From Fimbriiglobus ruber (GTDB taxonomy: Bacteria > Planctomycetota > Planctomycetia > Gemmatales > Gemmataceae), in assembly GCF_002197845.1 (NCBI RefSeq), contig NZ_NIDE01000001.1, positions 992,001-1,056,000 on the forward strand: a stretch of 64,000 nucleotides of DNA, written 5' to 3'. A program made the translations under genes and the position numbers. Below are positions 13,543 through 41,797 of this stretch, piece by piece. A model generated the notes under the pieces. The model was not told the origin of the DNA. It did not search any database and worked only from the letters and a program-made list of their open reading frames with translations. Within the stretch, counting starts at the first letter, position 1. Every line of letters starts with the position of its first letter.

Positions 13543-13638
13543 GAAAGAGTCGACCGCACCTGACGGGCGTGTGCCGCATCCAGCGACCTCGGTTGTTTGG
13601 CTGTCGTACACGCCCGTTCCGCGTGCGCGAAAACCGCA

Positions 13639-21874: not shown

Positions 21875-22824
21875 GAGCCTGTCCGGGAAGACTATTTTGA
21901 TGCAACTCTATATTTAAACGGGGGATAACGCTCTTGTGGGTCCATGCGATTGAGGATCAGCTGGATTGGCCGCACACGGATCATGGATTCGCTGGAACTA
22001 TTCAGTCGCTCATAATTACGACTCAACCGCCGGGCCCGCCCGAGCCACCCGAACGTCCGCTCGACGACCCACCGCTTGGGTAACAGGGTGAACCCCTTCA
22101 CCCCGTCCGGTCGGCGGACGATGACGAGTTCCCATCCGAGTTCCGGGTGGCCGTCCTTCCACCCGTTCAGGGTATGGTTGTGATACTTCCCGTCGGCCCA
22201 CACGACCTTCAACCGCGGGTACGCCTCCCGGTCCAACGATTCGAGTACGGTCGGGGCCGCGGCCGCGTCGTCGACGTGCCCGGCGGTCACCGCCACGACC
22301 ATCAACAGGCCCAGCGTATCGACCACGATCGACCGCTTCCGGCCCTGGATTTTCTTGCCCGCGTCGTACCCGTTCCCGCCCGCGTGTTCGGTCCCCTTGA
22401 CCGACTGGCTGTCGATGCTCGCGGCGCTCGGGGTCCGCTCGTGGCTCGGGCGTGGACTTCCCGATACCCCTCCCGGAGGACATCCAGGAGTTCTTGCCAG
22501 GTACCGTCGTCCCGCCACTGGGAGAAGTACTCGTACACCGTACTCTTGGCCGGGAAGTCGTGCGGGAGCATCGACCACTGACACCCCGACCGGTTCACGT
22601 ACAAGATCGCGTTCAGCACCTCCCGGAGGTCCACCGACCGGGGGCGTCCTCCGGGTCGGGCGGCGGGCAGGACGACCTGGATGATCTCCCATTGGAGGTC
22701 GGTCAAATCGGTCGGATACGGTTTGCGAACGGTCACGTCCATGACTTCGCTCCTCGAGTATGAAGGAGCGACTAACTTAAAAGAGACGCACAACTTACAG
22801 CAAGGTCACTTTTCGGACAGCCTC
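21875..22824. mobile_element. IS5-family (IS427-like) insertion sequence, 950 bp
   Basis: The element begins GAGCCTGTCCG at 21875 and ends with CGGACAGCCTC at 22824; after the first 11 bases the arms diverge. It is flanked by TAA on both sides (21872-21874 and 22825-22827), a 3-base duplication typical of the IS427 group. Inside lies one minus-strand transposase in two frames. Length, ends and protein all fit an intact IS. Confidence 0.88.
21892..22742 (-). CDS. IS5-family transposase in two frames (-1 shift)
   Basis: The protein starts at ATG 22742 (GGAG upstream) with PTDLTDLQWEIIQVVLP and a DUF4096-type N-terminal domain reaching REGYREVHA; this frame then loses homology and stops at 22302. 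The catalytic part continues in the -1 frame from about 22430 (PSAASIDSQSVKGTEHAGG) to the stop at 21892. DDE residues are visible: Asp in SIDSQSVKG, Asp in VVWADGKYHN and Glu in RWVVERTFGWLGR. Joined by a -1 shift the product has about 283 residues, normal for the group. No canonical slippery heptamer is seen at the junction, so it may be a point deletion and not programmed shifting. Confidence 0.85.
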
Positions 22825-24621: not shown

Positions 24622-26655
24622 ATGGCCCCAACTGACCCGCCCGTAATGCGTTACCTCCGGGCCGCCCTCGGCCCGACGGCCGACGGGCCAACCGATGCGG
24701 ACTTGCTCGGCCGGTTCGTCGCCGACCGGGACGAGGGGGCGTTCGAGCTGCTCGTCTGGCGGCACGCCGGGATGGTGCTGCGGACCTGCCGCGGCGTTCT
24801 CCGGGATCACCACGCGGCCGAGGACGTGACCCAGGCCGCGTTCCTGGTCCTCGCCCGCAAGGCCGCCGCGATCGGGCGACGGGAGGCCGTGGTTGGGTGG
24901 CTCTACCGCGTCGCCCGGCGGCTCGCGGTTCGGGCGGCGGCCCGTCGCGGGGTACAGCCGGTCAGCCCCGCGGCAGCACTCGATCTCGTACCCGGACCAG
25001 CTGCCGGGCCGTCGGACGATGCGGACATCGCGCCCCTCCTGCACGAAGAAGTTGCGCGGCTGCCGGACCGATACCGGCTGCCCGTATTACTCTGCTACTT
25101 CGAAGGGCTGTCGCACACGGACGCAGCAACGCGGCTCGGGTGGCCGGTGGGGACCGTGTCGGGTCGGCTGGCGCGGGCCAAGGCCACCCTCCACGACCGC
25201 CTGACTCGGCGCGGGGTGGCGGTCTCCGTCGGAGCGGTCGCCGCATTTCTTGCAGGCGACCCGACCGCGGCCGTGTCGGCGTCGTTCGCCGCGGTCACGA
25301 CGCGGGCCGCGGTCTCGTTCGCCGCGGGTGCGGCGGTCATTCCATCCGTCTCGAATTACACGATCGATTTGGCCAGGGGAGCGATCCGAGCCATGATTGT
25401 CACGAAATTCCAGTGGGCGGCCGGCGTGGTCGCCGCGTGCGGGGTGCTGACGTTCGCCGGGGTGTGGGCGTCGGGGCAGGGGCCAGGGCCGGAGGTTCCG
25501 AGCGGGCCGTTGGCGCCAAACCCGGCGAGTCCGCTACCGGTGGCAGCGAAAGCGGCAGACGGAAGTGGACCACGCCCCGATCCCGCCGGGCGAACGGCCG
25601 ATTTCGTGCAGAGGCACCGAAGTCTCAAGAATTTAAGGGCTATTCTCATCGCCATGCACGCTTATCAGGATACGTATGCGCGATTTCCATCGAACTTCGT
25701 CGATCATGGGAAACCGCTCCTGAGTTGGCGCGTCCAACTGCTTCCCTATCTCGACTGCAATGATCTGTTCAACATGTTTAAATTGGACGAACCCTGGGAT
25801 AGCGAACATAACCTCAAGCTACTGCCCAAAATGCCGGACGTGTTCCGCGTCGGGTTCGAGCCTCCGGGAGCGACACACACCTATTATCAGCGGATCGCAC
25901 TGACTGGCATCGTACCCTCAACGGCCGAAGATACAAATATACTGGGGTCGGGCGGCCCTCCCATGCCCGGCTCTGGTGGACCGGGCCCGATTCTCCCAGC
26001 CGCTATAGCCGGCGGTGCTCCGGGTAGCCCCGGCGGGGCGGCTCCAGCAGTACCGGCAGACGGGACGGCCGCGGCTCTTACAACGACGTCGTCCGAACCG
26101 TGGTTGCCCAGCAAGCTTTATGACATCCCCGACGGAACCTCCAATACCCTCGGCGTACTCGAAATCGGACCGGCGGTGCCGTGGACGAAACCGGCCGACT
26201 ACGTTTTCGACGTGAAGAAGAAGACCCGGGAATGGAAGCCACCTTTTGTCAACGTGTTACATGCCGCGGCTTACGACGGCGCGGCCTATACCCTCAAGCC
26301 GAACTTGGAGGACGTACTCGTCCGACGCTTGCTCGGTCCGAGCGACGGCGAGATGACCCCGCCGGTGAAGCAACTCCAAGCCCGGTTCGAGGAAAGCGCG
26401 GAAGAGAAGAAAGAACTGGTCCGTCTTTTTGAAGAAAATCGAAAGTTGATTGAAGAAATCGAACGGCAACAAGCCGAGCAGATCATGCTCTTCGGGACGG
26501 TCAACAAACTCACCAAGGAAATCGAACGCGCCGAAGAGCAACAGCAGGCTCTCAGGCGGGCACTCCAAACGCTTAAGGTCGTCAACAAGAAATGGCGGGA
26601 CGAAATGGGGCTTTCGTCCGGACAATCGGCTCCGAAGCTTCCACTCAATCGATAA
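24622..26655 (+). CDS. ECF sigma factor fused to membrane segment and DUF1559-like region
   Basis: A 677-residue multidomain protein. Residues 25-185 are an ECF sigma-70 factor: sigma2 with ADLLGRFVADRDEGAFELLV and HHAAEDVTQAAFLVLARKA, sigma4 with LPDRYRLPVLLCYFEGLSH and GTVSGRLARAKATLHDRL. A long Ala-rich stretch and a transmembrane segment (WAAGVVAACGVLTFAGVW, near residue 275) follow. Residues 325-560 resemble the DUF1559 exported domain (SLKNLRAILIAMHAYQD, LLSWRVQLLPYL, DIPDGTSNTLGVLEIG). The last 110 residues form a coiled coil. Such long ECF fusions are characteristic of Gemmata-like planctomycetes; here the sigma part could be held at the membrane and controlled by the exported domain, which is inference. 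The start could also be ATG 24646. Confidence 0.85.
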   Translation: MAPTDPPVMRYLRAALGPTADGPTDADLLGRFVADRDEGAFELLVWRHAGMVLRTCRGVLRDHHAAEDVTQAAFLVLARKAAAIGRREAVVGWLYRVARRLAVRAAARRGVQPVSPAAALDLVPGPAAGPSDDADIAPLLHEEVARLPDRYRLPVLLCYFEGLSHTDAATRLGWPVGTVSGRLARAKATLHDRLTRRGVAVSVGAVAAFLAGDPTAAVSASFAAVTTRAAVSFAAGAAVIPSVSNYTIDLARGAIRAMIVTKFQWAAGVVAACGVLTFAGVWASGQGPGPEVPSGPLAPNPASPLPVAAKAADGSGPRPDPAGRTADFVQRHRSLKNLRAILIAMHAYQDTYARFPSNFVDHGKPLLSWRVQLLPYLDCNDLFNMFKLDEPWDSEHNLKLLPKMPDVFRVGFEPPGATHTYYQRIALTGIVPSTAEDTNILGSGGPPMPGSGGPGPILPAAIAGGAPGSPGGAAPAVPADGTAAALTTTSSEPWLPSKLYDIPDGTSNTLGVLEIGPAVPWTKPADYVFDVKKKTREWKPPFVNVLHAAAYDGAAYTLKPNLEDVLVRRLLGPSDGEMTPPVKQLQARFEESAEEKKELVRLFEENRKLIEEIERQQAEQIMLFGTVNKLTKEIERAEEQQQALRRALQTLKVVNKKWRDEMGLSSGQSAPKLPLNR

Positions 26656-34049: not shown

Positions 34050-37000
34050 ATGCCTCGCACTCCCGACCGACGCGAAAATCGTAGCCCTCGGAAGAACCGC
34101 GGAGGTAGGAATCTCCAGGCGAATCAATCCGATACGCCGACCCGACAGCCCAAGCTCCACATTCTCCAATTTGAAGACCGGATCGTCCCGGACGGGACCG
34201 TAACGGGCACCGTTTTTCTCAATTACGAAGCGGACGGGGTTTTCCACCAATCCCCGCAGACCACCCCGACCGTTGGCAACCCGCCGAACACGGCCAACCT
34301 GTCGTCCGACACGGGTTGGAACGGTTCACCCGTACTGGTGACGGCTTACGACGCGAATAACGTGGCCGTCGGGTCCGCCTTCACGCAGTCCTCGTCCAAC
34401 CCCTCGGCGGCCACCAACGGAACCTACACCCTCACGCTGACCCCCGGGAGCCACGGGCCGTACCGGCTCGAATTCACCGACCTCCCGAGCGGCACGTTCT
34501 TCGGCCCGAGCGGGACGAACAGCAACACCGCCGTCCAGTTCATCAACGACCCGAACGGGGGGACGATCACGGGCGAGGATCTCGCGCTCGTCCAGGCGGA
34601 CACGCTCACCCCATCCAACCCGCTCCTGGTCTCGAACGAGTACGTTTTCGGGTCGTACAACGGGATCAACGCCAGCGACCCGGTCGTCGTCAGCTACCCG
34701 TACAACTCGGGCTCGACGATTCCGAATTCGAGTGCGCCCCCGTACGACGCGCCGCAATCGCACGCGATCGAGATCACCCAGAGCCAGGTCGGGTCGACGT
34801 GGGGGGTGGCTTTCAACCCGACCACGAATCAGCTTTACATGGCCGCGTTTTACAAGCAGCACACCGGGGTCGGGCCGGGCGGTGTCGGGGCCGTTTACAC
34901 CACCAACCCGCTGAACGAAACCCAGCTCCTGGCGGCCACCGCGAACAACACCACGGTCCCGACCACCACCAGCGTTCTGTTCGACCTCAACGCCCTCTTC
35001 CCGAGTCAAATGCCGGCCGGCAACGTCGACTTCCGGGACGGGTACACGAGCGACACGGATTACATTTACGACTCGGGGAACGTCGGGTGGGACGCGGTCG
35101 GCAAGGTCGGCCTCGGCGGGTTGGCCACGAGCCCGGACGGCCGCTACGTGTACACGGTCGCGCTCGGCAACCGCGAGCTGTACGTTTACGACACGCTGAC
35201 CCACCAGGCCGAAGGATACTCGTTCAATCTGCCGTCGGATGTCACCGGCATCACCCCAAGTAACCCGCTCGGGGACTTCCGGCCGTTCGCGGTGACGTAC
35301 TACGACGGCTCGATCTACGTCGGCGCGGTCAACTCCGCCGAGAGTACCCAGAACGCGTCCGACCTGCACGCCTACGTATTCCAATTCACCCCCGGCGCGT
35401 CGCCCGCCACGGGGTCCGGGTCGTTCGCCGCGTCGCCGGTGTTCGAGATGGCGGACATGACGTACAACCGCGGGTACGCCCAGGCCTACGCCGGGACGCC
35501 CGACGCGGCTAACCCGAACGGCACGCCCGTCTCGGCGAACTGGAATCCGTGGTCGCCCACTTACCAGGACTTGGCGGACCCGACCCGCCGGGAAGGAATC
35601 TACGCTCAGCCGGAACTGACCGGCCTGTCGTTCGACACCAGCGGTAACCTGGTTCTCGGGTTCCGTGACCGGGCGGGCGACCAGTTCGGCGTGCTGACTC
35701 CCGAACAGGCTGGTCCCGCGGCCACCGCGACCGCGACGGTTGCCGGCGGCAGTCTGACCGCGCTCTCCGTCACCAACGGGTCGAGCGGGTACGTGTACAG
35801 CACGAACCCGACGGTGACGATCACGGGGGGCGGTGGTACCGGTGCGACGGCCACGGCGACCGTCGTCAACGGTGTTGTGACTGGGTTGACGATCACAAAC
35901 GCGGGCACGGGCTACACGTCCGCCCCGACGGTCACGATCGACGCACCCGAAACCATCGCTAAGGTCGGTCTGGGCGTCGGCGACATCCTCCGGGCGACCG
36001 TGAACACGCCCGGCAACGTGGCGAACGGCTGGACGCTGGAGAACGACGGCAACGGGACGGCCGGCGCCGGCGACGACCAGGGGCCGGGCGGCGGCGAGTT
36101 CTACTACGGCGACAACTTGATCGGCAACGAGACCGTCAACGGCGTCCCGAACCAGGACGAGACCCAGGAGCTTTCTCTGGGCGGCGTGCTGCAACTCCCC
36201 GGCAACCCGGACGTCGCCTCGACCACATTCGACGCCGCCCAGATCGTGGGCCGCTTCAACACGGCCGGCATCCGCTGGTACAGCAACACCCCGGGCCCCG
36301 CTCAGGGGTCCGACATTCGCGCGTACGAACTGTACCAGGCCGAAGACCTCGATTTTTACATCAACGACCCCACCGCGTACCCGTTCTTTGCCAAGGCGAA
36401 CGGGCTCGGCGACCTCACGGCCCTCTCCTTCGCGCCGGTCGAAATCGGCAACCGGGTGTGGGCGGACACCAACGGCGACGGCATCCAGGAAGCGAACGAA
36501 CCCGGCATTCCCGGCGTGGTGGTCGACCTCCTCGACGCGAGCGGCAACACGATCGCGACGACCACGACGGCCGCCGACGGGACTTACTACTTCACGTCCG
36601 CCCCGCCGCCGCCCGACCCGTCCCAGGACGTGCCGGGTAAGGCGTACAGCGTCGGCATGCTTCCCGGGTCGCAGTACACGGTCAACATTCCACTGGATCA
36701 ACCGGCGCTCAAGTCCTACGCGATCACGACCGCGTTCGCGAGCTTGAACGGCAGCCCGGCCACAACGATCGACTCGAACATCGTCGCCGGCACCGGCGCG
36801 AGCGCGGGCGACGCCGTCATGTCGATTTCGCCTCTCCAGGCCGGGGAGTCCAACGAGGATTATGACGCCGGCTTCGTGCCGACGCTGAGCCTCGGCGACT
36901 TCGTGTGGACCGACACGAATAATGACGGCGTCTTCGACGACGGCGAATCCGGCCTGGCCGGTGTTCCGGTCCTGCTGCTCGACAGCAGCGGGAACCCGGC

Positions 37001-39854
37001 CAAGGATGCCAACGGAAACGTGGTTGCTCCCACGACCACCGACAGCACCGGGCACTATCTGTTCACGAACTTGCTGCCCGGTACGTACATAGTCCAGATC
37101 GTCGCGCCGTCGGGCTATGTTTCCAGCACGGGCGTGAACAACGCGTACGAGCCGGGGTCGACGGACTACACGGACGCCGGGAATAACCACGACCACGGGA
37201 CGCAAACCGGGCCCGTTATCCTGAGTCAGCCGGTGACTCTCACGCCGGCTGGGACGGACCCGGACACGACGCCGACGACCGGTATCGCAAACACGGCCAA
37301 CTTGAATGTCGACTTCGGCGTCTACCAGCCGCTGGCCCTCGGCGACTTCGTGTGGGTCGACACGAACAACGACGGCATCTTCGATAACGGCGAGTCCGGC
37401 CTGGGCGGGGTGACCGTCGTTCTCTTGAACGCGAACGGAACCCCGGCCACGGACGCGGCCGGGAACCCGGTCGCCCCAACCACGACCGACAGCACCGGCC
37501 ACTACCTGTTCACGGACCTGCTGCCCGGAACCTACAAGGTCCAGATCACCCCGCCGGCCGGGTACGTGTCCAGCACGGGCGTGAACGATGCGTACGAGCC
37601 GGGTTCGACGGACTACACGGACGCCGGCAACAACCACGACCACGGCACCCAGACGGGCGCGGTCATCGTCAGCCAGCCGGTGACACTGACGGCTGGTAGC
37701 ACCAACCCGGACGTGACCCCGACGACGGGCACCGTCGGCACAGCCAACCTGAACGTCGACTTCGGCGTGTACCAACCGCTGGCCCTCGGCGACTTCGTGT
37801 GGGTCGACACGAACAACGACGGCATCTTCGATAACGGCGAGTCCGGCCTGGGCGGGGTGACCGTCGTTCTCTTGAACGCGAACGGGACCCCGGCCACGGA
37901 CGCGGCTGGGAACCCGGTCGCCCCAACCACGACCGACAGCACCGGCCACTACCTGTTCACGGACCTGCTGCCCGGAACCTACAAGGTCCAGATCACCCCG
38001 CCGGCCGGGTACGTGTCCAGCACGGGCGCGAACGATGCGTACGAGCCCGGGTCGGGAGACTACACGGATGCCGGGAACAACCACGACCACGGCACCCAAG
38101 AGGGTGCAGTCATCGTCAGCCAGCCGGTGACTCTGACGGCCGGTGCCACGAACCCAGACACGACCCCGACCACGGGAATCGCAAAGACGGCGAATCTGAA
38201 CGTCGACTTCGGCGTGTACCAACCGCTGGCTCTTGGCGACTTCGTGTGGGTCGACGCGAACGACGACGGTGTCCTCGACAACGGGGAAACGGGTCTAGCC
38301 GGCGTGACCGTCGCTCTCTTGAACGCGAACGGAACCCCGGCCACGGACGCGACCGGGAATGTGGTTGCCCCGACCGTAACCGACAGTACCGGCCACTACC
38401 TGTTCACCAACTTGCTGCCCGGCACTTACGAAGTTCAGATCACGGCTCCCAACGGATACGTCTCCAGCACCGGCAACCCCGGTCGTGCGACCGGGCCGTA
38501 CGAGCCGGGATCGACGGACTACACGGACGCCGGGAATAACCACGACCACGGGACCGGCGCGACCAACGTCATCCTCAGCCAACCGGTGACGCTGACGGCT
38601 GGTAGCACGAACCCGGACGTGACGCCGACGACGGGCACCGTCGGCACAGCCAACCTGAACGTCGACTTCGGCGTCTTCCAACCGCTGGACCTCGGCGACT
38701 TCGTGTGGGTGGACGCTAACAACAACGGCGTCTTCGACAACGGCGAACAGCCGGTGCCGGGCGTTCTAGTCGAACTGCTCGACGGGAACGGGAACCCGAT
38801 CAAGGACATCAACGGCGTTCCGCTGACCGCGACCACCGACGCCACCGGCCACTACCTGTTCACGAACCTGATCCCCGGCACGTACGAGGTCCAGATCACG
38901 CCGCCGGCCGGGTACGTGTCGAGTACCGGCAACCCCGGCAGCCCGACGGGGCCGTACGAACCTGTCGTCGGCAACAGCACGGTCAACAACCAGGACCACG
39001 GGACGACCCAGGCGAACGGCCTGATCCGCACGAACCCGGTCACCCTGGCGCTGCCGGGCAGTTTGGCCAACCCGGACAGCGTGAACGGGGGCACGAACAA
39101 CGCCAACCTGCGGCAGGACTTCGGCATCTACCAACCGCTGGCTCTCGGCGACTTCGTGTGGGTGGACGCGAATAACGACGGCGTCTTCGACAGCGGGGAG
39201 ACCGGACTCGCCGGCGTTCAGGTCAACTTGCTCAACGCCAACGGCTCGCCGGTCACGACGCTCAACGGCAGCCCGATCACGACGACGACCGACGCGACCG
39301 GGCACTACTTGTTCACCAACCTGCTACCGGGCGTCTATCAGGTCCAGATCATTGCACCGGCGGGCTACATCAGTAGCACCGGGACGGGCACACTCACGGG
39401 TGGCGTCGGCCCCTACGAGCCGGGTTCGACGATCTACACGGACGCCGGGAACAATCACGACCACGGCACCGGCGCGACCAACGTGATCGTCAGCCAGCCG
39501 GTCTCCTTGACATCCGCCGGAACTAACCCGGATGTCACCCCGACGACGGGCACCACGGGGACAGCCAATCTCAATGTCGACTTCGGCGTCTTCCAACCGG
39601 TAACACCGCCACCGCCACCGCCACCACCACCGCCGCCCCCGCCCCCGCCCCCGCCGCCGCCCCCGCCGCCCCCGCCGCCGCCCCCGCCGCCCCACCACCG
39701 CCCCGCCGCCGCCCCGCCGCCGCCCCCGCCGCCCCACCACCGCCGCCGCCCCCACCACCGTCGCCCCCGGCTTCGGTCTCGGGGTACGTGTACATCGACA
39801 ATACGGTCACGGGCACGCGTGTTTCGACCGACAAGGGACTCGGCGGGGTGTTGA
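34050..39854 (+). CDS. Giant SdrD-repeat surface protein, N-terminal frame
   Basis: This 1934-residue frame starts at ATG 34050 (GGAG upstream). A basic N-terminus and LHILQFEDRIVPDG resemble the LExR-P-like leader common on planctomycete giant surface proteins. Residues 50-780 are beta-rich, with propeller-like blocks such as GVAFNPTTNQLYMAAFYK and two VTGLTITNAGTGYTS-type units. From residue 796 seven SdrD-B/Cna-B-like modules begin with LGDFVWVDTNNDG-type calcium-binding starts (codons near 36437, 36889, 37334, 37784, 38227, 38689, 39139). It ends in a poly-proline tract where the frame fails; the last 50 residues are frame-shifted nonsense. The true gene continues as the next entry. Confidence 0.85.
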   Translation: MPRTPDRRENRSPRKNRGGRNLQANQSDTPTRQPKLHILQFEDRIVPDGTVTGTVFLNYEADGVFHQSPQTTPTVGNPPNTANLSSDTGWNGSPVLVTAYDANNVAVGSAFTQSSSNPSAATNGTYTLTLTPGSHGPYRLEFTDLPSGTFFGPSGTNSNTAVQFINDPNGGTITGEDLALVQADTLTPSNPLLVSNEYVFGSYNGINASDPVVVSYPYNSGSTIPNSSAPPYDAPQSHAIEITQSQVGSTWGVAFNPTTNQLYMAAFYKQHTGVGPGGVGAVYTTNPLNETQLLAATANNTTVPTTTSVLFDLNALFPSQMPAGNVDFRDGYTSDTDYIYDSGNVGWDAVGKVGLGGLATSPDGRYVYTVALGNRELYVYDTLTHQAEGYSFNLPSDVTGITPSNPLGDFRPFAVTYYDGSIYVGAVNSAESTQNASDLHAYVFQFTPGASPATGSGSFAASPVFEMADMTYNRGYAQAYAGTPDAANPNGTPVSANWNPWSPTYQDLADPTRREGIYAQPELTGLSFDTSGNLVLGFRDRAGDQFGVLTPEQAGPAATATATVAGGSLTALSVTNGSSGYVYSTNPTVTITGGGGTGATATATVVNGVVTGLTITNAGTGYTSAPTVTIDAPETIAKVGLGVGDILRATVNTPGNVANGWTLENDGNGTAGAGDDQGPGGGEFYYGDNLIGNETVNGVPNQDETQELSLGGVLQLPGNPDVASTTFDAAQIVGRFNTAGIRWYSNTPGPAQGSDIRAYELYQAEDLDFYINDPTAYPFFAKANGLGDLTALSFAPVEIGNRVWADTNGDGIQEANEPGIPGVVVDLLDASGNTIATTTTAADGTYYFTSAPPPPDPSQDVPGKAYSVGMLPGSQYTVNIPLDQPALKSYAITTAFASLNGSPATTIDSNIVAGTGASAGDAVMSISPLQAGESNEDYDAGFVPTLSLGDFVWTDTNNDGVFDDGESGLAGVPVLLLDSSGNPAKDANGNVVAPTTTDSTGHYLFTNLLPGTYIVQIVAPSGYVSSTGVNNAYEPGSTDYTDAGNNHDHGTQTGPVILSQPVTLTPAGTDPDTTPTTGIANTANLNVDFGVYQPLALGDFVWVDTNNDGIFDNGESGLGGVTVVLLNANGTPATDAAGNPVAPTTTDSTGHYLFTDLLPGTYKVQITPPAGYVSSTGVNDAYEPGSTDYTDAGNNHDHGTQTGAVIVSQPVTLTAGSTNPDVTPTTGTVGTANLNVDFGVYQPLALGDFVWVDTNNDGIFDNGESGLGGVTVVLLNANGTPATDAAGNPVAPTTTDSTGHYLFTDLLPGTYKVQITPPAGYVSSTGANDAYEPGSGDYTDAGNNHDHGTQEGAVIVSQPVTLTAGATNPDTTPTTGIAKTANLNVDFGVYQPLALGDFVWVDANDDGVLDNGETGLAGVTVALLNANGTPATDATGNVVAPTVTDSTGHYLFTNLLPGTYEVQITAPNGYVSSTGNPGRATGPYEPGSTDYTDAGNNHDHGTGATNVILSQPVTLTAGSTNPDVTPTTGTVGTANLNVDFGVFQPLDLGDFVWVDANNNGVFDNGEQPVPGVLVELLDGNGNPIKDINGVPLTATTDATGHYLFTNLIPGTYEVQITPPAGYVSSTGNPGSPTGPYEPVVGNSTVNNQDHGTTQANGLIRTNPVTLALPGSLANPDSVNGGTNNANLRQDFGIYQPLALGDFVWVDANNDGVFDSGETGLAGVQVNLLNANGSPVTTLNGSPITTTTDATGHYLFTNLLPGVYQVQIIAPAGYISSTGTGTLTGGVGPYEPGSTIYTDAGNNHDHGTGATNVIVSQPVSLTSAGTNPDVTPTTGTTGTANLNVDFGVFQPVTPPPPPPPPPPPPPPPPPPPPPPPPPPPPPHHRPAAAPPPPPPPHHRRRPHHRRPRLRSRGTCTSTIRSRARVFRPTRDSAGC
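37332..38672 (+). repeat. Tandem SdrD-type repeats, 447-base period
   Basis: Successive modules start at 37332, 37779 and 38226, exactly 447 bases (149 codons) apart; the next begins at 38685, after 459 bases. The first two are almost identical over most of their length, including the run coding LGDFVWVDTNNDGIFDNGES. Such near-identity points to recent duplication and possible copy-number change. Confidence 0.85.
39601..39770 (+). repeat. CCN proline tract with four short C runs
   Basis: The tract is made of CCG, CCA and CCC codons for about 50 prolines. Inside it C runs are normally five bases long, but at 39690-39693, 39701-39704, 39712-39715 and 39732-39735 they are four. Each short run moves the frame by one, and the four together produce the break between the two halves of the surface protein. 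Confidence 0.85.
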
Positions 39855-41797
39855 TCGCCCTGAACGGCCCGAACGGGGTCTCGGAAACGACGTATACCGA
39901 TTCGTCCGGATTCTACCAGTTCACGGACTTGACTCCGGGTACGTACACGATTCGCGAGCAGCAGCCGTCGGGCACCTTCTACAACGGGTACACCAACACC
40001 GGGACCGATGCCGGGGTGGTCGACGGTACCTCCGGAATCGACATTATCTCGGCCATCAACCTGAATTCGGGCGATGCCGGCCTGGAGTACGACTTCGGCG
40101 AGATTCAGCCGACCGGAACATTCGGCTACGACTGGTTCGACACCAACCGGAACGGGGTCTACGACCAGGGCAGTGAGCCCCCGATTCCGGGCGTCGCCGT
40201 TACGATCAGTGGGACTGCGTTCGCGGGAACGCCGCTGGCCCGTCCGCTGACCGCGGCCGACGTTCCAGGCGGTCTGACCGTTACCACGAACAGCGCCGGC
40301 CGGTACGACTACCCGGTCCTGCCGCCGGGCGTTTACACGATTACGTCGGTCCAGCCGACGACCTTCGACGGCATGTCGCTCGTTCACTGGCAGGAGCAGA
40401 ACGGCGACCCGACCGGGCCGAACCCGACGATCGACAACCCGAACCCGCGGACGTTCTCGGACGTCGTCCTGACGGCTGGTAATGCGTCCCGCGGGCCGTT
40501 CAACTTCGGCGAGACGGCTTTCAGCGGCTCGCCGCCGACGACGCCCCCGATCATCGTCCCGCCGACGCCGCCATCGAAGCGGGACTTCCTCGACTCGACC
40601 GACACCAGTGGATCGAGTTCAAGCGGGGCGGCGGCGGCCGCGCCCGCGGAAAACGTGGCGCCGTCGTCGCCAGGGGTCAACGCCGCCGTAGCGGATCTGC
40701 CGCAGGATCCGCAATTCGCGGTGTCCACCGGGACGCCGACCGTACCCGCGTTCGTCGCGGTCGGGGCCGGCCCCGGGTCCGCCCCACTGGTTCGGGTGTT
40801 CAATTACGCGACCGGGGTGGAGGTGTTCCAGTTCCTGGCGTACGAGCAGTCGTACACCGGCGGCGTCCATGTCGCGGTCGGTGACATCAACGGGGACGGG
40901 GTGCCGGACATCGTCACCAGCACCGGCGTGGGCGGCGGCCCGCGGGTGCGGGTGTTCAGCGGGATCGACGGGTCGGTCCTCGAAGACTTCTTCGCCTACG
41001 AACCGACGTACACCGGCGGCGTCAGCATCGCGGTCGGGGACGTCGAGGGGATCGGGCGGGACGACATCATCACCGGGACCGAGACCGGCGGTGCCCCCCG
41101 CATCTCGGTATTCAACACGAGCAACGTGTCGAACCCGATCGCGTCCTTCTTCGCCTTCGATTCATCCCAGCGCAGCGGTGTCCGGATCGCGGCCGCCGAC
41201 TTCAACGGGGACGGTAAGGCCGACATCGTGGCCACGACCGGCCCGGGCGTGACCACCCAGGTCCGGGTGTTCAGCGGGGCGGACGTCCTGCTCAACCAGG
41301 CGAACATTTCCCCGATTCAAACGATCAACCCGTTCGGGGGCGCGTTCTCGGGCGGGGCGTACATTGCGACCGGCGATTACAACGGCGACGGCATGCCGGA
41401 CATCATCGTCGGGGCGGATGCAGGCGGCGGTCCGCGGGTCCAGGTGTTCAGCGGGACCGACGATTCGATCCTGGCTGACTTCTTCGCCTACGAGCCGACG
41501 TTCACCGGCGGGGTCCGCGTCGCCGCCCTCGACGTCAACGGGGACGGCCACGCCGACATCATCGCCGGGGCCGGCCTCGGCGGGGCCACCCGGGTCACGA
41601 TCTTCTCGGGCGCCGGCGTCGGGGCGAGCCTGGTCCCGAACGTCATCGACGACTTCTTCGCGTTCGACGCCACCGTCCTGGACGGCGTCTACGTCGGGGC
41701 TGGAACCTCGAAGCCGGTGGGCGGAACGTCGCCGGTGACTACGCCGGCTGCGATCGGCTCCCTCGGCCTCTCGGGGACCATGCCGCCGTTATCGTAA
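39788..41797 (+). CDS. Giant surface protein, C-terminal frame (SdrD and FG-GAP repeats)
   Basis: A 669-residue frame, really open from inside the proline tract (SPPASVSGYVYIDNTVTG). It begins with two more Cna-B/SdrD-like modules (GFYQFTDLTPGTYTIREQ, FGYDWFDTNRNGVYDQGS), a Ser/Ala-rich linker, and six FG-GAP/VCBS-like blades with calcium-type loops (VAVGDINGDGVPDIVTS, AAADFNGDGKADIV, ATGDYNGDGMPDIIVG, AALDVNGDGHADIIAG). No transmembrane anchor is visible at the end. Restoring one C in each of four C4 runs fuses it to the upstream frame into a single protein of 2583 residues. It has no ribosome site of its own, so it is not an independent gene. Confidence 0.85.
   Translation: MYIDNTVTGTRVSTDKGLGGVLIALNGPNGVSETTYTDSSGFYQFTDLTPGTYTIREQQPSGTFYNGYTNTGTDAGVVDGTSGIDIISAINLNSGDAGLEYDFGEIQPTGTFGYDWFDTNRNGVYDQGSEPPIPGVAVTISGTAFAGTPLARPLTAADVPGGLTVTTNSAGRYDYPVLPPGVYTITSVQPTTFDGMSLVHWQEQNGDPTGPNPTIDNPNPRTFSDVVLTAGNASRGPFNFGETAFSGSPPTTPPIIVPPTPPSKRDFLDSTDTSGSSSSGAAAAAPAENVAPSSPGVNAAVADLPQDPQFAVSTGTPTVPAFVAVGAGPGSAPLVRVFNYATGVEVFQFLAYEQSYTGGVHVAVGDINGDGVPDIVTSTGVGGGPRVRVFSGIDGSVLEDFFAYEPTYTGGVSIAVGDVEGIGRDDIITGTETGGAPRISVFNTSNVSNPIASFFAFDSSQRSGVRIAAADFNGDGKADIVATTGPGVTTQVRVFSGADVLLNQANISPIQTINPFGGAFSGGAYIATGDYNGDGMPDIIVGADAGGGPRVQVFSGTDDSILADFFAYEPTFTGGVRVAALDVNGDGHADIIAGAGLGGATRVTIFSGAGVGASLVPNVIDDFFAFDATVLDGVYVGAGTSKPVGGTSPVTTPAAIGSLGLSGTMPPLS

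What the first reader, a model, noticed from the sequence alone, without database searches (positions are those of the whole stretch)
39601..39854. Giant surface-protein gene broken by C-run length changes in its proline tract
The frame of the SdrD-repeat half and that of the FG-GAP half meet in a CCN tract. Every C run there that keeps proline coding has five bases, but four runs (39690, 39701, 39712, 39732) have four. Adding one C to each restores an unbroken 2583-residue reading frame. Either these are sequencing errors in a hard repeat, or the tract is a slippage hot-spot that turns the C-terminal domain on and off (phase variation).
Basis: partly seen in the sequence, partly recalled or inferred. 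Interest (0 to 1): 0.7.

Follow-up and report, generated by a model that had tools for sequence, protein, structure and literature searches.

The report
Giant gene split, probably assembly error
A very large surface-protein gene, probably from a peat-bog planctomycete, looks cut in two inside a run of proline codons, but the break is most likely an assembly error of a kind seen elsewhere in the same genome, so it is probably an ordinary intact gene.

Summary
In a 164-base CCN tract, nine C runs have five bases and four (39690, 39701, 39712, 39732) have four; the SdrD-repeat half and the FG-GAP half lie in frames one base apart. They are halves of one protein: a same-genus relative carries both in one open frame of 2502 codons with a short proline linker, and two paralogues in this genome keep the junction in frame. 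(1) In this assembly 5 of 7 giant SdrD loci have interior frame breaks, against 3 of 19 in relatives. (2) One such gene was assembled twice, at overlapping contig ends: over 4.1 kb there is no substitution and ten bases are missing, all in one version; three of them break the frame. (3) The proline tracts elsewhere that I could judge stay in frame. Phase variation is unsupported: no C run exceeds five, there are no population data, and CCN units slip by threes. Against: no reads, platform unknown, and sister-copy comparison of the paralogues' breaks was inconclusive.

The parts
34050..39854 (+). first open reading frame (1934 aa): N-terminal region, SdrD B-like repeats, proline tract, then an out-of-frame tail to the stop at 39852-39854
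   Evidence: Pfam SdrD_B E 1.4e-152, seven stretches
36441..39380 (+). array of SdrD_B domains, seven matches over the cut-off (first 36441-36602, last 39141-39380)
   Evidence: converted with window = G000:C1:992001-1056000
36883..38920 (+). 447-base tandem repeat (4.5 copies, 81% matches) under the SdrD array
39606..39769 (+). proline (CCN) tract, 164 bases; nine C5 and four C4 runs; the frame changes inside it
39690..39735 (+). segment with the four C4 runs (39690-39693, 39701-39704, 39712-39715, 39732-39735); likely site of missing base calls (inference)
39788..41797 (+). second open reading frame (669 aa from its first start codon, GTG): two SdrD_B domains and an FG-GAP region; the frame is open from 39527 but has no ATG, GTG or TTG before 39788
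39773..40099 (+). SdrD_B match that begins three bases after the tract and 15 bases before the first possible start codon of the second frame
40754..41708 (+). FG-GAP repeat region (about residues 323-640 of the second frame, limits by the range of database matches)

Best explanation
The locus is one intact gene for a giant, probably exported, protein: an N-terminal region, a stalk of SdrD B-like repeats, a proline linker grown into a long CCN tract, two more SdrD B-like domains and an FG-GAP beta-propeller head. The deposited sequence is short of bases in C runs of the tract. These are consensus homopolymer-length errors that survived because the tract is GC-rich, low in complexity and inside a repetitive gene. 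Shown: the two halves belong together; this assembly loses single bases in a gene of the same family. Inferred: that these particular C4 runs are such errors, why they survived, and the roles of stalk, linker and head (from domain names).
For: Same-genus relative L035 with SdrD repeats, linker PPVPPTVPPA, and the same domains after it in one open frame of 2502 codons; paralogues on contigs 4 and 7 with the junction in frame. Interior frame breaks in 5 of 7 giant SdrD loci of this assembly against 3 of 19 in relatives, Fisher p 0.014. Contig 8 end and contig 19 start, one locus assembled twice: 0 substitutions and 10 missing bases in 4.1 kb, all in contig 8; three coincide with frame switches absent from the contig 19 version. 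One paralogue (C8 at 379.6 kb) is broken beside another C4 run outside any proline tract. In the seven relatives' tracts that I printed, the proline frame runs on into the downstream flank. Homopolymer-length errors that cause frameshifts and persist in repeats after short-read polishing are documented (PMC8812927, abstract and passages).
Against: No reads were available and the platform of this genome could not be checked (genome paper not held). The tract lies about 0.54 Mb from its contig's nearer end, whereas the twice-assembled control lies at contig ends, and about 290 bases of that overlap which I left out hold all 20 mismatches of the match. Against their nearest sister copies, six breaks in three sibling loci gave a net one-base loss in only 2 of 6; in 4 of 6 the net was 0 or 3, probably because the nearest copy is itself shifted, so the same break can recur in two copies. 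Nine other C runs of the tract are not short. The break counts rest on a home-made codon model, few loci and comparators that I chose.
Confidence: 0.78

Rival explanations
1. The break is real and fixed: a recent net one-base loss in the tract ended the protein after the stalk, so the head is no longer made in this strain (a young pseudogene or a shortened protein).
For: A low-complexity tract with exact internal repeats of 20-25 bases is a plausible place for indels. The downstream half has no other break, which fits a young event. Breaks at the same point in two sister copies of the contig 8 gene could be real.
Against: Four short runs, three of which cancel, are more than one event needs; other SdrD loci of this assembly are broken too, and the locus assembled twice differs by missing bases only over 4.1 kb.
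Confidence: 0.13
2. Phase variation: tract length or C-run length varies between cells, switching the FG-GAP head on and off while the stalk is always made (C-terminal phase variation).
For: C-terminal phase variation by homopolymer tracts is proposed for Helicobacter canadensis (PMC2823697, abstract); a C5/C6 difference between strains is reported for one Neisseria gene (PMC5084427, passage).
Against: The longest C run is five, below the cut-off of six used in that Neisseria survey; trinucleotide units slip in frame; no variation data; the same-genus relative has a short linker instead.
Confidence: 0.05
3. Ribosomal recoding: pausing at polyproline with slips at CCC-C joins the frames in a minority of products.
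For: CCC followed by C or U is a known +1 slippery site when m1G37 is missing, and EF-P suppresses frameshifts on polyproline (PMC7577736, passages). Two +1 slips at CCC-C sites reach the second frame without a stop by 29 routes (one search listed 36, seven of them impossible because the sites overlap).
Against: It needs two slips in one passage, so the yield would be low (inference); any tract rich in CCC offers such sites; the relatives compared need no recoding.
Confidence: 0.03
4. Two separate genes: the FG-GAP half is translated on its own from GTG 39788.
For: An open frame of 669 aa with a start codon exists.
Against: The first start codon lies 15 bases inside an SdrD_B match; the only purine run near it is GGGG three bases upstream (by eye), too close for a usual ribosome site (recalled); in relatives both halves are one protein.
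Confidence: 0.01

Closest known systems
Homopolymer-length errors in long-read bacterial assemblies (Polypolish paper, PMC8812927; abstract and passages seen)
   Same: bases lost in short homopolymers, worst in repeats, breaking reading frames
   Different: the platform used for this genome was not verified here
SdrD_B / FG-GAP giant proteins of the same family of bacteria
   Same: domain content and order; matches to the second half in 39 of 41 genomes searched, own included
   Different: the linker is an unusually long CCN tract and the deposited frame is broken in it
C-terminal phase variation proposed in Helicobacter canadensis (PMC2823697; abstract and section list seen)
   Same: a repeat deep in the gene could alter the C-terminal end
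   Different: homopolymeric tracts with length variation in reads there; C5 at most and no variation data here
Staphylococcal MSCRAMM SdrD
   Same: B-like repeats
   Different: scores 358 bits against a cut-off of 2500 for the NCBIfam SdrD model

Membership tests
assembly indel artefact | relatives carry the gene in one frame | tested here: met
   L035 one open frame of 2502 codons (its last part, after 10499, seems shifted); L036, L037, L038 and L040 join both halves in one frame
assembly indel artefact | the assembly makes deletion errors in comparable sequence | tested here: met
   C8/C19 overlap, 4.1 kb: 10 missing bases, 0 substitutions, one side only, about 290 ragged bases left out; 5 of 7 giant SdrD loci broken
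assembly indel artefact | breaks in sibling genes are single-base losses against sister repeat copies | tested here: inconclusive
   net one-base loss in 2 of 6 breaks examined, net 0 or 3 in 4 of 6
assembly indel artefact | raw reads disagree with the consensus at the tract | not testable with these tools
   no reads held
phase-variable (contingency) locus | long simple repeat whose unit is not a multiple of three | tested here: not met
   longest C run in the tract is five; cut-off six in the cited survey
phase-variable (contingency) locus | length variation within a population or between strains | not testable with these tools
   one genome per species held; 3 genomes in the genus
programmed ribosomal frameshift | slippery site conserved in orthologues | tested here: not met
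   the same-genus relative has an in-frame short linker
MSCRAMM SdrD adhesin | score above the curated SdrD cut-off | tested here: not met
   358 against 2500 bits
SdrD_B domain protein | Pfam PF17210 over the curated cut-off | tested here: met
   499 and 67 bits against 29.7

The most novel reading that the evidence does not exclude
The CCN linker is a real instability hot-spot: its length and phase vary between cells of this planctomycete, so that a stalk with or without its FG-GAP propeller head is displayed, a C-terminal phase variation through a mixed proline tract rather than a long homopolymer; the breaks in four sibling SdrD loci would then be the same strategy, not errors.
Probability: 0.05. 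Interest if true: 0.55.

Novelty: not a real feature. Interest (0 to 1): 0.13.

Why it matters
It matters mainly as a warning: in this 12.4-Mb assembly most of the giant SdrD genes examined (5 of 7) are split in frame, and in one of them three of the splits are differences between two assemblies of the same place. Gene lengths, architectures and 'pseudogene' counts for such proteins should not be taken from it unverified. If the break were real, it would be a new way to switch the head of a stalk protein.

Tried and rejected
Rejected: independent translation of the FG-GAP half (start inside a domain); programmed frameshift (not conserved, two slips needed); an MSCRAMM adhesin. Led nowhere: the scan of 84,980 named genomes gave 27 loci, of which only one is a near relative, a 3-kb MAG contig titled Limnoglobus sp.; a hunch that contigs 2 and 10 duplicate each other, from a shared coordinate, found no match in the two stretch pairs compared; the genome paper is not held and three searches listed no genome report for this organism among the rows shown, so the platform is unknown; one search on polyproline and phase variation returned a single, unrelated paper. 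Comparing six breaks of sibling genes with their nearest sister copies did not settle the kind of indel.

Limits of the codon model. It also reports switches that need not be errors: of the 15, one (window 22434) lies in an IS4/5-type transposase, several look like overlapping gene pairs (by eye), and one place was counted twice because stretches overlap (L116, L135). The 5 of 7 was counted by me: places with four or more SdrD_B matches (three single matches left out), contig 8 end and contig 19 start counted as one; the genes on contigs 5 and 14 are the two intact ones. The 3 of 19 was counted: L180-L190 (11 of the arrays in the capped list, chosen by me, mostly from genomes in few contigs), L035, L036, L044, L039, L040, L041, L043, L045; the three with a switch are L035 (near its C-terminal end), L041 and L045 (near its end, into a short segment). 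L048 was run but is not counted, because it came in for its FG-GAP match and I saw no long SdrD array in it; L042 overlaps L180 and was not run. My first count was 1 of 14 with p 0.006; adding the five further loci gave 3 of 19 and p 0.014. In relative G062 six switches lie beside, not inside, the SdrD gene, unresolved. A switch at L175 11123 lies outside the SdrD gene, in a frame that resembles the window's BBP7 porin (by eye).

Full report
What the sequence shows. The tract 39606-39769 (164 bases) is a CCN array. Thirteen C runs of at least three bases lie in 39595-39790: nine of five bases and four of four bases (39690, 39701, 39712, 39732). The frame of ORF 34050-39854 runs as prolines up to the first short run; the frame of ORF 39788-41797 reads prolines after the last one. 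The frames differ by one base. From the first to the last short run is 42 bases, so three of the short runs cancel and the net break is one base. Pfam finds SdrD_B domains on both sides (seven stretches in the first half, two in the second) and FG-GAP repeats in the second. The SdrD array is a 447-base tandem repeat.

Where it lies. The window is 992001-1056000 of contig 1 of a genome of 12,363,577 bases in 20 contigs. That size matches Fimbriiglobus ruber, 12.364 Mbp, as quoted in PMC5915940 (passage); [quoted passage not shown] No call names the genome, so the name is an inference. The tract is about 0.54 Mb from the nearer end of a 1.57-Mb contig.

One gene, not two. Of 41 genomes searched with the second half (own included), 39 have matches. 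The best match outside this genome is in one of the two other genomes of the genus held here. It carries SdrD repeats, the linker PPVPPTVPPA, and the same two SdrD_B domains and FG-GAP region in one open frame of 2502 codons, stop to stop (L035); its last part, after 10499, seems itself shifted. Paralogues on contigs 4 and 7 of this genome (L037, L038) and relatives L036 and L040 also have the two halves in one frame at this junction. In the window the second frame has no start codon before 39788, which is 15 bases inside an SdrD_B match. The halves are therefore parts of one protein, with a short linker in the relative and a long CCN tract here.

Is this tract unusual? Thirty stretches of this genome around other CCN or C-run motifs gave 25 tract rows, 24 of them distinct. 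In 8 of the 25 rows (6 stretches) both flanks score as coding (at least 0.13 per codon, a line that I drew afterwards); in 8 of 8 the flanks share strand and frame. In three of these eight the tract reads as proline on the coding strand; in five the coding strand is the other one. The other 17 rows have a weak flank and cannot be judged. In the window the flanks score 0.40 and 0.46 in different frames. Seven of the 25 rows hold one or two off-phase bases, so short irregularities do occur. Of 95 genomes of the family (own included), 18 hold a 23-base piece of the tract. From the 20 loci returned, 13 tract rows other than the window's were measured; in 7 of 13 the proline frame stays open for at least 200 codons on both sides. 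In all seven relatives' tracts that I printed, the proline frame runs on into the downstream flank; two of them (L151, L161) begin within 60 codons of an upstream stop. One of the seven has 63 bases with seven C5 runs just before a stretch that looks like an FG-GAP repeat (L154, by eye). Four-base runs in these tracts encode Ala or Arg beside Pro and do not change frame.

The same assembly breaks its other giant genes. A seven-state codon model run over 277,534 bases of this genome (35 stretches, some overlapping) found 15 same-strand frame switches: the window's, one in the contig 4 paralogue, three in the contig 7 paralogue, and ten others, among them a transposase, apparent gene overlaps, a repeat-rich protein, and one place counted twice. 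I then took the eight places with four or more SdrD_B matches; contig 8 end and contig 19 start are one locus, so seven. With the same model 5 of 7 have at least one break inside the gene: the window; contig 4 (one); contig 7 (three); contig 8 end with contig 19 start (five in one version, one in the other); contig 8 at 379.6 kb (one). The loci on contigs 5 and 14 are intact. In relatives 3 of 19 loci have a switch in the gene (L035, L041, L045). Fisher's exact test gives p = 0.014. The comparators were chosen by me and their platforms are unknown. The break at 379.6 kb of contig 8 is beside a four-base C run outside any proline tract.

A direct control. The last 4,098 bases of contig 8 and bases 1150-5254 of contig 19 are the same locus assembled twice: an overlap that runs to the last base of contig 8 and starts near the first of contig 19. 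After three unmatched bases at my cut, the alignment has no substitution and ten missing bases, all in the contig 8 version, seven of them in runs of two to five equal bases. Three lie at 13611, 15143 and 15315 of L173, at the model's frame switches 13624, 15143 and 15317, while the contig 19 version is one coding segment in one frame through that region (709-4422 of L174). I left out of this count the first 290 or so bases of the match, near the ragged start of contig 19, which hold all 20 mismatches and most of the gaps that BLAST reported over 4,410 columns. So this assembly does lose single bases in this gene family, and the losses look like frame breaks. The control is at contig ends; the window tract is not.

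A test that did not settle it. I aligned six breaks of sibling loci (contig 4, one; contig 7, three; contig 8 end, two) to the nearest other copy in the same locus. Two of six show a net loss of one base; the others show a net of 0 (two) or of three (two), so their nearest copy is probably shifted in the same way. The two in contig 8 that give 0 break at the same point of two sister repeats.

Mechanism. Homopolymer-length errors are the most common residual errors of long-read-only bacterial assemblies, they cause frameshifts, and they persist in repeats because short-read alignment is unreliable there (PMC8812927, abstract and passages). A CCN tract inside a gene of similar repeats is such a place. 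Whether this genome was sequenced with long reads I could not check.

Phase variation. No run exceeds five C. A survey of Neisseria used six as the lower cut-off for homopolymers but reports one gene that alternates between C5 and C6 (PMC5084427, passages), so five is unfavourable, not impossible. CCN units, and units of six or 42, slip in frame. C-terminal phase variation is proposed for Helicobacter canadensis (PMC2823697, abstract). Nothing here shows variation. Recoding: CCC followed by C or U is slippery to +1 when m1G37 is missing, and EF-P suppresses frameshifts on polyproline (PMC7577736, passages). The window has 29 two-slip routes to the second frame without a stop, but two slips in one passage are needed and any CCC-rich tract offers them.

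Verdict. I put 0.78 on artefact, 0.13 on a real fixed break, 0.05 on phase variation, 0.03 on recoding and 0.01 on separate translation.

Noticed in passing
L173 11909-16297 (G000 contig 8 end) and L174 857-5254 (contig 19 start): Two contigs of this genome overlap at their ends but were left unmerged; over 4.1 kb the overlap differs by missing bases only. They are probably neighbours on the chromosome.
   Followed up: yes
L173 5322 and 6170: Two sister SdrD repeats break frame at the same point and are of equal length there: a systematic error or a real feature.
   Followed up: partly
window 21892-22793, minus strand: An IS4/5-type transposase in two overlapping frames (DUF4096 part and DDE part), perhaps an element with natural frameshifting, perhaps broken.
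   Followed up: partly
window 24622-26655: One open frame joins Sigma70 regions 2 and 4 to an SBP_bac_10 (DUF1559) region.
   Followed up: no
G000 whole genome: The second half (SdrD_B plus FG-GAP) has 216 matches in this genome with 150 of 203 first-look candidates scored: a very large family.
   Followed up: no
L108 2962-3071 (G000:C1 about 833.6 kb, minus strand): Another long CCN tract (110 bases, 32 of 33 non-C bases in one phase); whether it codes for proline or lies antisense to a glycine-rich gene is unclear.
   Followed up: partly
L175 11123 (G000 contig 4): A frame switch in a stretch that resembles the window's BBP7 porin (by eye); perhaps a further break outside the SdrD family.
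   Followed up: no
L190 7001-13124 (relative G062): Six same-strand frame switches beside an intact SdrD gene; perhaps an error-rich stretch of that assembly or poor gene calls.
   Followed up: no
window 34326-38222, minus strand: A 1298-aa open frame antisense to the SdrD gene, most likely a by-product of codon bias in the repeats.
   Followed up: no
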